Of a stretch of DNA of 64,000 nt, positions 3,541-63,174 are shown in pieces (position 1 is the stretch's first letter; each line of letters starts with the position of its first letter). The notes under the pieces are model-generated. The model was not told the origin of the DNA, ran no database searches, and saw only the letters and a list, made by a program, of their open reading frames with translations. Position numbers and translations under genes: made by a program. The DNA comes from a virus. Location of the stretch: positions 1 to 64,000 of the IMG/VR virus record IMGVR_UViG_3300047334_000093; one strand, 5' to 3'.

Positions 3541-3798
3541 ATGGGCACCCGAGAAAAATACTTTGATTGGCCGGCCAACCCTTGGGCAATTGAGCTTATA
3601 AAAACAGAGTGGGCAAAAGGCACGCCAGCAAAAAATATTGCCGAAATGATCGGCGTGAGCAACTCCGCAGTTTTGAGCAAGGCACGCTACTGGGGTTTAA
3701 AAGCTCGGCCGCGCGGCTGCAAACCGGGTGCAATGCCAAAGGGCCTGCAAAACTATGTGGAGCGCAAAAAAGCTCAGAAAGAAGGAGCGCAGCTTTGA
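3541..3798 (+). CDS. GcrA-like helix-turn-helix protein, short form
   Basis: The 85-aa product carries a GcrA-type N-terminal domain: W-x5-IELIKTEWAKGTPAKNIAEMIGVSNSAVLSKARYWGL in outline, with the spacing of the GcrA DNA-binding helices. GcrA is an alphaproteobacterial cell-cycle regulator that binds sigma70-RNA polymerase and responds to CcrM methylation. This copy ends in a basic tail and lacks the GcrA C-terminal Cys region. The stop TGA overlaps the TTG start of a second, fuller GcrA-like gene. Assignment is by motif only. Confidence 0.65.
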   Translation: MGTREKYFDWPANPWAIELIKTEWAKGTPAKNIAEMIGVSNSAVLSKARYWGLKARPRGCKPGAMPKGLQNYVERKKAQKEGAQL

Positions 3799-4220
3799 AG
3801 CCGTTTAGCTGGGACAACGAAGCAATTTTGAACCTCACGCGGTTATGGACTGAAGGACACACGTGTGTGGCTATAGCAAAAGCAATCGGCGTTTCAAAAT
3901 GTGCGGTTGTTGGCAAAGCACATCGGCTTAAATTGACTTCGCGGCCAAGTCCAATTCAGAGCGGATTGGGTAAACGGCCCGAAGCAATGGCACGGCCTAA
4001 AAAAGCGCCGATTATTTTGCCAGTTACGACGGCAAATTTTTCCCTAATTCGCACACGTAAAAACGAACCATGTTGCTATGCCACCGAAACTGGCGTTGAC
4101 GTGCCGGGGAAGAGGTGGAAATATTGCAACGAACCAACTAGCAATGGTCCATATTGCGCAAAGCACTCAGAAAAAATGTATGTGTCAAAAACACCAACTT
4201 TAAGGAGCGGTTATGTATAA
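3795..4220 (+). CDS. GcrA-like regulator with C-terminal Cys motif
   Basis: Starting at TTG 3795, behind GAAGGAGCG and overlapping the previous stop, the 141-aa product shows an N-terminal GcrA helix-turn-helix (SWDNEAILNLTRLWTEG, then VAIAKAIGVSKCAVVGKAHR). Its C-terminal segment holds EPCCYATETG and KYCNEPTSNGPYCAKHS. The latter matches the C-terminal Cys/His signature I know from GcrA (CGKP..PGKPYCAEH). In cells GcrA docks onto sigma70 and directs transcription at methylated promoters. A phage copy could redirect host RNA polymerase or mimic the cell-cycle state. Low-level similarity to the gene before it suggests duplication and divergence. Confidence 0.75.
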   Translation: MKPFSWDNEAILNLTRLWTEGHTCVAIAKAIGVSKCAVVGKAHRLKLTSRPSPIQSGLGKRPEAMARPKKAPIILPVTTANFSLIRTRKNEPCCYATETGVDVPGKRWKYCNEPTSNGPYCAKHSEKMYVSKTPTLRSGYV

Positions 4221-6363: not shown

Positions 6364-7580
6364 CCGTCAGCTAAAGCAGACGGCTTTGCTCTACAACATT
6401 TAAGCTGCGAGCATTTCAGGATGGTTTACTGCACCCCTTGCGAGGATAGCCCGTTGTCGGATCACCCTCGCTGCGTTCAAGTCGGCATTCGCTTCGTGCG
6501 AACAGCCGATGCATTGGAAGGTTCCTTGGTTGGGGCGGTTGCGCTTGTCGATACAGCCACATTCGGCGCACTGCCGAGATGTGTTGCGCGGATCAATGCA
6601 GACCAGCGGGACACCAGCGAGCCGCGCCTTATAAGCACAGAACTCGCCAAGCTGCCCGAAGCCCCAGTTGCCAAGCCGTGCTCGTTGGTCGCTACCTCTG
6701 GCCGAGACCCGTTTGCGGATGCCTTTCAAATTTTCAAGGACCAATCCGCGCCCGGTGCGTTGAGCTTTACCGACAAGCACCTTCGAAATGATGTGGTTTT
6801 GTGCGGTTTGATATCTCCGTTGTTTGCCGGCAAGTTTCTTCAGTCGGCGCTTCGCGGCGCGCGTGCCGCACTTCTGCAAGCCGCGACGGCGCTTTTGGAT
6901 GCGTTGTCGGCGCTTCTCAATCTTAGAGCCAGAGTATGTAATGCCATCGCTGTCGGACGCCAATTGCACGATGCCGAGATCAACGCCGAGCCAGTCTTCG
7001 GCTTTGAACTTATCGGTCTCGGGCACATCGCAAGTAGCGTTTAAGAACCATTTGCCCCGCACGAGGCAGAGGTCGACTTCGCCCTTCCTGTAAACCATCA
7101 AACGCCGCTGATGTTCGCCCATGACGATATCGATTGTAATCCGGCCCTCAACGGTCCAAAGGTTCACACGACCGTCTTTGGTGAACCGGATGATCCGATC
7201 GTCGTAAGGCTGGGCGGCGTCGGGCCGAAACACCGGAGCAACATCACTGTTAACCTTGAACGCGTCCGCAACCTTAGCGATCGACCGAACCGACGCTTGA
7301 GCGGTCAAGCCGAACCGCTCTTTAAGAGCCGCGTATCCGAACTTGTGGAGATGGAATTGCCGAAAAGTTTGACTGTCGAACCCCATTTGCCCAAGCCAAG
7401 TGCACGCCGCGTTGCACCGATTAAGCGTGGCCGTCAACACGGCAGCTTGCTCGGGCGTCGGCAGAATTTTGAGGGCGGCGACCAGCTTCATTCTTCATAT
7501 ATAGACGAAACGGGTGTATCAGTGCAAGAGCTAAACGCTGCCGATTTTCTCGCTATCCCTCCGCTGCCTAAAGGCAGCGG
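6364..7580 (-). mobile_element. IS200/IS605-type element carrying tnpB only
   Basis: Two 20-bp hairpins flank the tnpB gene at 6364-6383 and 7561-7580. Read in the tnpB direction both have the form CCG-4 nt-CTTTAG-4 nt-CGG, with the same central CTTTAG and perfect outer pairing but different inner bases. Subterminal hairpins of this kind are the recognition ends of IS200/IS605 elements. No tnpA is present, so mobility would depend on a transposase supplied elsewhere. The element is about 1.2 kb and lies antisense in the rightward early operon. Confidence 0.75.
6400..7491 (-). CDS. tnpB: TnpB-type RNA-guided nuclease of an IS605-like element
   Basis: The 363-aa protein has a complete TnpB layout. 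It starts with an N-terminal ALKILPTPEQAAVL, followed by RuvC-I GVDLG with Asp171, RuvC-II LVLENLKGI with Glu253, a zinc finger with Cys308/311 and Cys327/330, and RuvC-III ADLNAA with Asp337. Known TnpB proteins use an RNA made from the 3' end of their own gene and the element's right end to cut the empty donor site. Here that RNA would run leftward past 6364, with the guide taken from sequence near 6340-6364. Catalytic residues are intact, so activity is plausible. It is antisense to the surrounding operon. Confidence 0.9.
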   Translation of the reverse strand: MKLVAALKILPTPEQAAVLTATLNRCNAACTWLGQMGFDSQTFRQFHLHKFGYAALKERFGLTAQASVRSIAKVADAFKVNSDVAPVFRPDAAQPYDDRIIRFTKDGRVNLWTVEGRITIDIVMGEHQRRLMVYRKGEVDLCLVRGKWFLNATCDVPETDKFKAEDWLGVDLGIVQLASDSDGITYSGSKIEKRRQRIQKRRRGLQKCGTRAAKRRLKKLAGKQRRYQTAQNHIISKVLVGKAQRTGRGLVLENLKGIRKRVSARGSDQRARLGNWGFGQLGEFCAYKARLAGVPLVCIDPRNTSRQCAECGCIDKRNRPNQGTFQCIGCSHEANADLNAARVIRQRAILARGAVNHPEMLAA

Positions 7581-16480: not shown

Positions 16481-17089
16481 ATGCCAAATTCGGAGCCGGA
16501 CTCGCGCTGCGAGCCTGATGGTGGAACTTTTCTGCCTTGGTATGTTGTCCAAACAAATCCTGGCAAGGAAATTGCTGTTTGGAAGCGTTTGCTTGATTTT
16601 CAGTGCTATGTGCCGATGGAAGTAAAATGGCGCGTAGTATTGAAGAATGGTCGTCCGGTTTTCGAAAATGGCATTCGTAAAACCGAAGAAGTAAAGAAGC
16701 CTTTTTTTCTTCGATATCTTTTCGTGTCTTTTGATGTTGATGCAAACAATTGGACTAAAATATTTTACACGGAAGATGTTTCGCGTTTGTTTTGCCACTA
16801 TTGCGGTGATCGCCCCATACCGTTGCGGTTGCCTATGGGGTATGTTGAAGGATTGCAACGTCGCGGTCGATCTGGCGACGGTTTTATTGACCTTGATGCT
16901 GAGCGTCGTGGTCATATGCCTGACCCAAATTGGCTTGTTGGGTCGACCGTCACCATCAAGGAAGGTTCGTTTGCTGGGTATGATGCAGTCATTCTGGCAA
17001 ACGACGTGGATCGAGTGACAATGCTGTTTAGCTTGTTTGGGCGTGAAACTAAACTTGAAATGGCGCTTTCTGCCGTGGATGTGCGATAA
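16481..17089 (+). CDS. nusG-like: NusG-family transcription elongation/antitermination protein
   Basis: The 202-aa protein has both NusG domains. The NGN domain (about 19-128) opens WYVVQTNPGKEIAVWKRLL, continues with RYLFVSFDVD, and reaches the GDRPIPL...VEGLQ helix. The KOW domain (about 153-200) reads GSTVTIKEGSFAGYDAVI, then LFSLFGRETKLEM. NusG and its paralogues RfaH and LoaP ride on RNA polymerase, suppress pausing, and in specialised paralogues relieve termination over long operons. The gene ends at the ATG of the small terminase, at the head of about 42 kb of co-directional late genes. Inference: it is the phage's own late antiterminator. It carries an unusual insertion after the first strands (KNGRPVFENGIRKTE). 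Confidence 0.88.
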   Translation: MPNSEPDSRCEPDGGTFLPWYVVQTNPGKEIAVWKRLLDFQCYVPMEVKWRVVLKNGRPVFENGIRKTEEVKKPFFLRYLFVSFDVDANNWTKIFYTEDVSRLFCHYCGDRPIPLRLPMGYVEGLQRRGRSGDGFIDLDAERRGHMPDPNWLVGSTVTIKEGSFAGYDAVILANDVDRVTMLFSLFGRETKLEMALSAVDVR

Positions 17090-61217: not shown

Positions 61218-61477
61218 GGCTGCGGCATCCGTTCGGGGTTTCCACACGCACTGCACTTGCGCCACGTAACGGGCGATCCGAGGCCGATAGCATCCACGTT
61301 GAGTTCCCATCCGGTGGTTTCGCAATAGTGGCAGTTCTTTGCCGGTTCCTGCTGGGCCGGGCAATCGCACCATTCGCGACCGCAGTTCTGCGGGTAGCGG
61401 CACGGAATGCGCTCCATCACTACGCGCTTGTGTCGCTGGTCGCCGGAGCGCTCGGCTATGCGGTCCCAGGCGCTCAT
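61214..61477 (-). CDS. Small Cys-rich zinc-finger-like protein, 87 aa
   Basis: The start is ATG 61477. Cys pairs occur in RYPQNCGREWCDCPAQ, CHYCE and KCSACGNP, enough for two zinc sites. Such proteins often bind nucleic acid or partner proteins. It overlaps both neighbours by four bases. No named family. Confidence 0.55.
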   Translation of the reverse strand: MSAWDRIAERSGDQRHKRVVMERIPCRYPQNCGREWCDCPAQQEPAKNCHYCETTGWELNVDAIGLGSPVTWRKCSACGNPERMPQP

Positions 61478-61800
61478 TCTTCGCGTTCCAACAGCAACAG
61501 CGCATCTCGCACTTTCTGCAACGTGTCGGCGCGAGCGTCGTCCGGCGTGCAATCCTCTGGCGTTTCTCCCATGATGCACGACATCGCTTGAATCAGCGCA
61601 TCCCGAACCACGTCGGGCTTCGGAACCACGAGCAAGCCCTTTGTGTAAAGCATTCTTATTACCCGGATATCAACTTCGACCAACTGAGTATCGTCGTCGT
61701 CGGTGCTGCCGCTTAGGCGCTGAATGGCAATAGTCTCATCATTTCCGCCTCGGTCGACGTTGAAACTGCCGTCACTATACATGCGCGCATAACGGCGCAT
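61474..61800 (-). CDS. Acidic protein of unknown function, 108 aa
   Basis: ATG 61800 follows GAAGG at a usable distance. The acidic product (RYARMYSDGSFNVDRGGNDE; TLQKVRDALLLLEREE) has a short strand region and a long C-terminal helix. Its start lies only 22 bases after the stop of the TnpB-like gene. No family is recognised. Confidence 0.55.
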   Translation of the reverse strand: MRRYARMYSDGSFNVDRGGNDETIAIQRLSGSTDDDDTQLVEVDIRVIRMLYTKGLLVVPKPDVVRDALIQAMSCIMGETPEDCTPDDARADTLQKVRDALLLLEREE

Positions 61801-61822
61801 GGGGCCTTCGCGCTTATTGCTT

Positions 61823-63055
61823 TCACTCACGGGAAAACCCGCCAGCGACCGCAACATTCGAAGGTGGCCCGCCGTGACTAGACCGGACGGATGCCCGATC
61901 CCCGCCACGAACGGCAGAGCCTCGCTTTCGGCGGGTGTCCCCGCCCGGTTCGGGCAACGCTTGCCCTACCGCGCCGCTCAGAATCACCCGAGCGGCCGCC
62001 ACGTCGCGGTCAAGCACCGCGCCGCAGCCATCGCAGGCCCACGTCCGAACGGACAGGGCGAGCTTCCCGCCGACGTGGCCGCAGTCCGGGCAGACACCCG
62101 TGCTGCGCACGAAGCGGCCGTGGACATGCCACGACCGCCCCGCCCACGCGGCCTTGTAGCGCAGCACCCGAAGGAAGGTGCCCAGCCCGGCGTCGGCCAG
62201 CGAACCCGCCATGCGGGTGCGCATCAGGCCACGCAGGCTCAAATCTTCAATGGCAAAGCCGCTGTAGCTATCGACGAGCTTCCGCGTCGCCTTGTGCATC
62301 GCGTCTTTCCGGGCGTCTCCTACCGCCCTGTGTGTGCGGCCCAGCCGGGCTACGGTGCGCTTGCGGTTCACGCTGCCCTTGCGCCGCCGATCACGCTCTC
62401 GGTTCAGTCGCCGAAGCCGCTTGGCGGCCTTGCGGGCAAGACGTGGGTGCGCAATCCGCGTGCCGTCGCTCAGGGTCGCCAGGTGCAGCAACCCGCCGTC
62501 GATCCCCACCATGGGCAACGCCGGTTCGGCATAGACCTTCGGCGCAGCTTCAAACTGGATGGAAACATGCCAGCCATTTGGCTCTTGCGTCACGGCCACC
62601 TGCTTCATGTCCGCGCCAACCGGCAAAGCCATGCCGCGCACGCGCAGCCAGCCAATATTCGGCAGGCGAATACGGCCCGGTTCAACACGGACCTCGCGGC
62701 CAACAAACGAAAACGCATCGGACCTGTCGGCGTATTTCTTGAACCGAGGGAAGCCCCGCCGCGCGCTGCCCTTGCTCTTGGCGCAGTCGCGCAACGCGCG
62801 GTCAAGTTTCTGCACGGTCATCTGAGCGGCGCGATGCGGCAGTCCGGCAAGCCGTGGATCGGTTTTCAACAGCGCGGGCAGCTGCGCCGACATTTCGGCG
62901 TAGAAGACAAACTTGCCTTCGGCCTCGTAGCGGGCGGCGTTCTCGGCCACGAACAGGTTCCAGACTGCGCGGCACTGGCCGCCGATCCGCGCGACCGCTG
63001 CCAGCCCGCCGCCGTAGAGCTTGCCCTTCGTCGCCTGAATCACGGGACCGCTCAC
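61823..63055 (-). CDS. TnpB-family nuclease embedded in the leftward operon
   Basis: The GTG at 63055 overlaps the upstream stop as GTGA, which gives a 410-aa protein. It contains RuvC-I VGIDGG (Asp186), RuvC-II AIEDLSLRG (Glu270), a zinc finger with Cys322/325 and Cys341/344, and RuvC-III LDRDVAAAR (Asp351). These are the TnpB catalytic and zinc residues. The N-terminus differs from usual (ATKGKLYGGGLAAVARIGGQ where others have a YPT.EQ motif), and the C-terminal 50 residues are Gly/Arg-rich. No subterminal hairpin or TnpA is seen. Overlap with the gene before it and a 22-base gap to the next suggest a resident, possibly domesticated, gene. The coding GC is much higher than in the late block. 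Confidence 0.8.
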   Translation of the reverse strand: MSGPVIQATKGKLYGGGLAAVARIGGQCRAVWNLFVAENAARYEAEGKFVFYAEMSAQLPALLKTDPRLAGLPHRAAQMTVQKLDRALRDCAKSKGSARRGFPRFKKYADRSDAFSFVGREVRVEPGRIRLPNIGWLRVRGMALPVGADMKQVAVTQEPNGWHVSIQFEAAPKVYAEPALPMVGIDGGLLHLATLSDGTRIAHPRLARKAAKRLRRLNRERDRRRKGSVNRKRTVARLGRTHRAVGDARKDAMHKATRKLVDSYSGFAIEDLSLRGLMRTRMAGSLADAGLGTFLRVLRYKAAWAGRSWHVHGRFVRSTGVCPDCGHVGGKLALSVRTWACDGCGAVLDRDVAAARVILSGAVGQALPEPGGDTRRKRGSAVRGGDRASVRSSHGGPPSNVAVAGGFSRE

Positions 63056-63174
63056 GCGAATAGGTCCGCCAGCCGGAGGCGCCCATGCTGACCAATCAGG
63101 CACCGCGCGATGCGCTCGCCAACATCCTTCGACCCCCGCCGCCGCTGCCAGCATTTTAAATGGTGGGTTGTCAT
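63052..63174 (-). CDS. 40-aa leftward peptide linking two overlaps
   Basis: ATG 63174 overlaps the stop of the methyltransferase fragment and TGA 63052-63054 overlaps the GTG of the TnpB-family gene. The basic peptide reads MTTHHLKCWQRRRGSKDVGE, then RIARCLIGQHGRL. It looks like a normal small phage gene. Its intact coupling argues against simple transposon disruption. Confidence 0.55.
   Translation of the reverse strand: MTTHHLKCWQRRRGSKDVGERIARCLIGQHGRLRLADLFA

What the first reader, a model, noticed from the sequence alone, without database searches (positions are those of the whole stretch)
61823..63055. TnpB-family nuclease built into an overlapping early operon with no transposon ends
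The GTG start overlaps the preceding stop, the next gene starts 22 bases after its end, and I find no terminal hairpins like those of the other tnpB in this genome. Catalytic Asp-Glu-Asp and zinc Cys residues are all present. This looks like a TnpB protein kept as a phage gene, perhaps as an RNA-guided weapon against host or rival DNA, or as a regulator. Its guide RNA, if any, would be encoded near the 3' end of the gene (about 61780-61900).
Basis: partly seen in the sequence, partly recalled or inferred. Interest (0 to 1): 0.85.

Follow-up and report, generated by a model that had tools for sequence, protein, structure and literature searches.

The report
TnpB remnant of an IS1595 transposon
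A gene for an RNA-guided DNA cutter (TnpB) in this phage is not an original phage gene but the surviving half of a transposon of the IS1595 family, a kind of jumping gene not known from the literature I could search to carry TnpB; it has lost its transposase but kept the intact nuclease and the conserved guide-RNA region.

Summary
The TnpB gene at 61823-63055 (-) is real, full length and catalytically intact. "No transposon ends" is half wrong. Relatives at 59-87% identity in other viral contigs and two Acetobacteraceae-family genomes show its origin: it is the second gene of an IS1595-family (DDE, ISXO2-like) transposon with terminal inverted repeats (TIRs) and 8-bp target duplications. The window keeps the last ~26 transposase codons (63132-63052), tnpB and the right TIR (61830-61809); the left TIR and the rest of the transposase are gone. 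The start-stop overlap that suggested a phage operon is the transposon's own coupling. The gene's 3' end plus right TIR form a conserved, covarying RNA with suppressed synonymous change, as expected for a guide (omega) RNA ending at the transposon edge; the guide would read the next phage gene's start. In six copies with a left end, the flank carries CGNNCA just before the 8-bp duplication position, on that side only: where a TnpB target-adjacent motif must lie. Four phage-borne copies lost the transposase with four different left break points. Best reading: an RNA-guided retention/homing nuclease recruited by a DDE transposon. I found no IS1595-TnpB pairing in the literature held. Targeting is untested.

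The parts
61823..63055 (-). tnpB, 410 aa RNA-guided nuclease, RuvC triad D186/E270/D351, zinc cysteines 322/325/341/344
   Evidence: body dN/dS 0.12-0.15 against the three nearest homologues
63052..63132 (-). remnant: last ~26 codons and stop of an IS1595-family (DDE) transposase; the stop overlaps the tnpB start
   Evidence: tblastn with the L003 transposase, 73% over 26 aa, E=7.7e-7; full-length transposase precedes tnpB in L003, L004, L006, L007, L040
61809..61830 (-). right terminal inverted repeat of the transposon (GTGAGTGAAAGCAATAAGCGCG)
   Evidence: shared right end then divergence in window, L003, L005, L006, L008, L046, L047; inverted copy at the left end of L003/L004/L006/L007/L046
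61809..61930 (-). predicted omega-RNA 3' scaffold overlapping the tnpB 3' end and running to the transposon edge
   Evidence: fold z=-3.6; covariation on 7 copies, 90.8% cells paired vs 27-46% slid, 8 double-change cells, 0/500 shuffles; dS falls from 0.79 to 0.16 in the last 39 codons, window vs L003
61789..61808 (-). predicted guide (AAGGCCCCATGCGCCGTTAT), the flank right after the transposon end, covering the start of the next phage gene; inferred
   Evidence: position by analogy with known TnpBs; no second match with CA prefix within 3 mismatches in the window
61474..61800 (-). downstream phage gene (108 aa, unknown), start overlapped by the predicted guide; context only
   Evidence: no relatives found

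Best explanation
The locus is a left-truncated copy of an IS1595-family DDE transposon whose second gene is tnpB. In complete copies the order is left TIR, ISXO2-like transposase, tnpB (start overlapping or abutting the transposase stop), right TIR, with 8-bp target duplications. The 3' end of the tnpB message together with the right TIR forms the omega-RNA scaffold, and the bases just outside the right TIR (8-bp duplication, then flank) are the guide. On an allele without the transposon the guide sequence is preceded by a CGNNCA-type motif, which would act as the target-adjacent motif; on the occupied allele it is preceded by the transposon end (..CG), so it would not be cut. TnpB would therefore cleave empty alleles and drive recombinational copying of the occupied allele, as described for IS605/IS607 TnpBs. 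In this phage the transposase and left TIR have been lost but the nuclease, scaffold and guide are intact, so the unit could still act as a homing or retention nuclease against sister phages lacking it. Shown by sequence: origin, ends, RNA conservation, intact active site, purifying selection among homologues, one-sided flank motif. Inferred: RNA production, guide boundary, motif use, cleavage, homing.
For: DNA homology with relatives has sharp limits at about window 63118 and 61808. Relatives have a full transposase (DDE_Tnp_IS1595 E=1.1e-36, NF033547 E=2e-53) directly before tnpB and inverted terminal repeats. L040 sits at a cysD/cysN junction (read from its sequence) with a perfect 8-bp duplication TTAAAAGT (confirmed by a script search); L003 has ATCATCTG. 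Transposase and TnpB diverge together (57-72% and 66-83%), so the pairing is old. RNA: covariation and structure, suppressed synonymous change only in the 3' 39 codons. Motif CGNNCA at -14,-13,-10,-9 from the left end in 6/6 insertions, none on the right; 4 or more invariant columns in about 5e-6 of random placements. Active site mapped to ISDra2. TAM = preferred insertion motif, and copying onto the empty strand, are described for IS TnpB in PMC11870625.
Against: No empty-site relative of this phage was found, so the guide/empty-allele match cannot be checked here. Only L003 and L040 have an exact 8-bp duplication; L006 and L046 have left and right flanks that do not match. The motif rests on six sites, and could be the transposase's own preference. 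Control on IS1595 elements without tnpB: one only (ISPepr2, no CGNNCA). No expression or cleavage data. The window copy can no longer transpose by itself, so it could be a young neutral remnant.
Confidence: 0.75

Rival explanations
1. Neutral relic: the phage picked up the IS, lost part of it, and the nuclease is intact only because the loss is recent; nothing selects for it.
For: Transposase and left TIR are gone; complete copies also sit in other viral contigs, so insertion and decay are expected; the right end lies only 14 nt past the stop, so its survival with tnpB is partly passive.
Against: Body dN/dS of the transposase-less copies is not raised (window-L003 0.117, L005-L003 0.078, against L003-L006 0.148) and the RNA region is as conserved as in complete elements. 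Four phage-borne copies lost the transposase with different left break points.
Confidence: 0.3
2. Domesticated phage gene: kept for a phage function such as attack on rival phages or host plasmids, or RNA-guided regulation like TldR.
For: Transposase lost in four phages while tnpB or its right end stays; position among early genes (RecT, dUTPase, methyltransferase).
Against: No related phage with the gene at the same place was found; the guide is just the local flank; RuvC residues intact, unlike TldR; each phage copy sits at a different site.
Confidence: 0.12
3. Ordinary IS200/IS605 or IS607 tnpB with ends missed by eye.
For: TnpB protein itself is of this superfamily (guided_TnpB above cut-off; IS200 and IS607 specific models below cut-off).
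Against: No Y1 transposase or serine recombinase in the phage record; relatives have a DDE transposase, TIRs and 8-bp duplications, which IS200/IS605 elements lack (established knowledge).
Confidence: 0.03

Closest known systems
ISDra2 TnpB (IS200/IS605), RNA-guided nuclease (PMC8612924)
   Same: protein family; RuvC D-E-D and zinc cysteines align residue by residue; RNA scaffold at the 3' end of the gene running to the element's right end; guide from the flank (the latter two inferred here)
   Different: carried by a DDE IS1595-family transposon with TIRs and 8-bp duplications, not a Y1 transposon; left-flank motif CGNNCA instead of TTGAT (the latter from general knowledge); RNA scaffold end is the right TIR
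IS1595 / ISXO2-like insertion sequences (Pfam PF12762, NCBIfam NF033547)
   Same: transposase family, TIRs, 8-bp target duplication in complete relatives
   Different: 28 other IS1595-type loci in sampled Acetobacteraceae lack a tnpB of this kind; the window copy has lost the transposase
TldR, phage-encoded TnpB-derived RNA-guided regulators (PMC13418256)
   Same: TnpB-derived protein in a phage, away from a transposase
   Different: TldR is nuclease-dead (general knowledge) and regulates flagellin; here the nuclease triad is intact and the guide is the local flank
Fanzor1 in eukaryotic DDE transposons (PMC10711439)
   Same: RNA-guided TnpB relative carried by a DDE transposon
   Different: eukaryotic, divergent protein; this is bacterial/phage and an ordinary-size TnpB

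Membership tests
TnpB RNA-guided nuclease | OrfB_IS605 and TNB domains, RuvC D-E-D, zinc cysteines | tested here: met
TnpB RNA-guided nuclease | omega-RNA encoded at the 3' end of the gene | tested here: met
   at sequence level: conserved covarying structure and low synonymous rate; transcription not tested
TnpB RNA-guided nuclease | TAM next to the guide on the empty site | tested here: inconclusive
   CGNNCA in 6/6 left flanks of relatives, exact duplication in two; not testable in the window copy, whose left side is lost
TnpB RNA-guided nuclease | RNA-guided DNA cleavage | not testable with these tools
   needs biochemistry
IS200/IS605 element | Y1 TnpA, no TIRs, no target duplication | tested here: not met
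IS607 element | serine recombinase TnpA | tested here: not met
   for the window phage; relatives carry a DDE transposase
IS1595 transposon (origin) | DDE_Tnp_IS1595 transposase next to tnpB | tested here: met
   in relatives; only the last ~26 codons remain in the window, the catalytic domain is absent
IS1595 transposon (origin) | TIRs and 8-bp target duplication | tested here: met
   L040 and L003 complete; window has the right TIR only
IS1595 transposon (window copy as an autonomous element) | own transposase and both ends | tested here: not met
TldR | inactive RuvC | tested here: not met
   triad intact
domesticated phage gene | kept at the same place in related phages | tested here: inconclusive
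   no close relatives of this phage found

The most novel reading that the evidence does not exclude
A DDE transposon family has recruited an RNA-guided TnpB whose guide RNA ends in the transposon's own terminal inverted repeat and whose TAM is the transposon's one-sided insertion motif (CGNNCA), so that TnpB protects or copies a DDE transposon; phages then repeatedly shed the transposase and keep the TnpB-RNA unit as a transposase-free homing nuclease.
Probability: 0.4. Interest if true: 0.8.

Novelty: new variant of a known kind. Interest (0 to 1): 0.6.

Why it matters
In bacteria TnpB is described in the papers found here as part of IS200/IS605 and IS607 elements. A stable, old pairing with a DDE transposon having inverted repeats and target duplications would show that RNA-guided retention is a portable module that works with quite different transposition chemistry, as seen for eukaryotic Fanzor1. 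The one-sided insertion motif where a TAM must be makes the idea directly testable, and the transposase-free phage copies offer a natural case for asking whether TnpB alone can act as a homing endonuclease.

Tried and rejected
Empty site of this phage: scans with RecT, terminase and the downstream protein in viral contigs, and an 8-kb DNA search in phages, gave no close relative; same for L047 and L005 flanks. Second copies of the right-flank octamer upstream of the truncated copies: none convincing; L005 has an 11-base repeat about 430 bases upstream that I could not interpret. Target-site control with 28 other IS1595 loci failed because ends could not be identified; ISPepr2 gave one control. 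More members: class, order and family genome surveys found only two genomes. Right-end and left-end pattern scans in viral contigs mostly gave chance hits. Rfam: no family match (only a sub-threshold chance hit). Structure prediction was not run because the sequence match to solved TnpB is clear. A weapon reading was considered and set aside for lack of any non-self guide match in the window; host genomes were not searched for the guide.

Full report
OBSERVATION. The ORF at 61823-63055 on the minus strand is real: 410 aa, GTG start overlapping an upstream TGA, next ATG 22 bases after its stop. It is a TnpB: OrfB_IS605 and TNB domains, NCBIfam guided_TnpB well above cut-off, ISDra2 TnpB as nearest natural solved structure. 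D186, E270 and D351 fall on ISDra2 D191, E278 and D361, and four zinc cysteines are in place.

TRANSPOSON ENDS. A scan of viral contigs found five relatives at 82-87% identity and one at 59%; the genome scan found one of the five again in Crenalkalicoccus roseus, whose gene reads in two frames; a family survey added a 67% relative, L040. DNA similarity to L003, L004 and L006 starts and stops at the same two places, about window 63118 and 61808. On the left, the relatives continue into a complete ORF that is an IS1595-family transposase (DDE_Tnp_IS1595 E=1.1e-36, NF033547 E=2e-53); the window keeps its last ~26 codons only. On the right, window, L003, L005, L006, L008, L046 and L047 share ...AAAGCAATAANCNCG and then diverge; this is an inverted copy of the left end GGGAATTATTGCTTTT... 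in L003 and L004, with close variants in L006, L007 and L046. L040 shows the complete element: GGTTCCTATTGACATAACGCATT ... AATGCGTTATGTCCGTAATCGCG between two copies of TTAAAAGT, at a cysD/cysN junction (TIR and duplication confirmed). L003 has ATCATCTG on both sides. So the window holds a right end and lacks a left end. The start-stop overlap is the transposon's own: TGATG in L003, GTGA in L006, ATGA in L040.

PAIRING. Transposase and TnpB identities fall together among L003, L006, L007 and L040. In about 300 Acetobacteraceae-family genomes, 30 IS1595-type transposase loci were retrieved; only the two of this clade have a tnpB of this kind in the flank. The clade is rare: two of 299 family genomes, and no further genome in the order and class samples.

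GUIDE RNA. The last ~120 nt before the transposon edge fold better than shuffles in the window copy (z -3.6), less clearly in the others (z -0.35 to -2.7). A shared structure of four helices on seven copies has 90.8% of cells paired against 27-46% when slid, and 8 cells with compensatory double changes (0/500 shuffles reach it). Between window and L003 synonymous divergence is 0.79 in the body of tnpB but 0.16 in the last 39 codons, where dN/dS rises to about 0.9: the signature of a constraint on RNA, not protein. The right TIR is the 3' arm of the last hairpin, so the guide should start at 61808. TnpB is known to process its own mRNA into the guide RNA (PMC10278001, title and abstract).

FLANK MOTIF. 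Six copies keep a left end: L003, L004, L006, L007, L046, L040. All six have CG at -14,-13 and CA at -10,-9 from the left end, that is CGNNCA immediately 5' of the 8-bp duplication position; four or more invariant columns in a 20-nt block occurred in about 5e-6 of 200,000 random placements; the right flanks have no invariant column. This is where a TnpB TAM has to be if the guide begins at the right TIR. DDE insertion would be expected to leave a roughly symmetric target, so the asymmetry suggests a role of TnpB or of ordered ends; six sites are too few to decide. L006 and L046 do not show matching duplications. One IS1595 element without tnpB, ISPepr2, has an 8-bp duplication but not the motif.

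TRANSPOSASE-FREE COPIES. Besides the window, L005 (85-kb virus; no transposase remnant, tnpB starts in the stop of a small upstream gene), L008 (about 20 nt of remnant) and L047 (76-kb virus; remnant RLRELFA-stop, tnpB N-terminus joined to what reads as the end of an IS607 recombinase and another tnpB, right end kept) lack transposase and left TIR with four different left break points. Body dN/dS is not raised in the window or L005. This favours retention of the TnpB-RNA unit, though all were found through tnpB, so survival of tnpB is built into the sample, and the right end is close enough to the gene to be carried along.

FUNCTION. The predicted guide covers the start of the next phage gene and has no second match with a CA prefix in the window. 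This fits self-versus-empty-allele targeting, as in the IS gene-drive model (PMC11870625), and gives no support to a weapon or regulator.

LITERATURE. Searches for IS1595 with TnpB, DDE with TnpB, and phage-encoded TnpB found no description of this pairing in the held library; the main classification paper of TnpB diversity is not held, so priority cannot be claimed.

Noticed in passing
window 6400-7491 (-): A second, only distantly related TnpB (27% identity over part) with hairpins on both sides (CCGCTGCCTTTAGGCAGCGG upstream, AGCCGTC...GACGGTT downstream, read), as in a transposase-less IS605-type element; also similar to part of a Cas12f2 model.
   Followed up: partly
L047 4980-6470: Chimera in a phage tail-gene region: IS1595-type tnpB N-terminus joined to an apparent IS607 recombinase C-terminus and another tnpB, with the IS1595 right end and terminal hairpin retained; looks like a nuclease swap between two transposon families.
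   Followed up: partly
L046 4800-5583: Internally deleted derivative of the element with both TIRs kept, next to a terminase-like gene; a possible non-autonomous copy.
   Followed up: partly
L005 about 7574: An 11-base repeat (CCCGATCTTGA) of the sequence just outside the right end lies about 430 bases upstream of tnpB; unexplained.
   Followed up: no
window 3609-4220 (+): Phage-encoded GcrA-type cell-cycle regulator (Pfam E=3e-13), suggesting an alphaproteobacterial host.
   Followed up: no
window 16481-17089 (+): Phage-encoded NusG-domain protein (Pfam E=1.6e-13) just upstream of the terminase.
   Followed up: no
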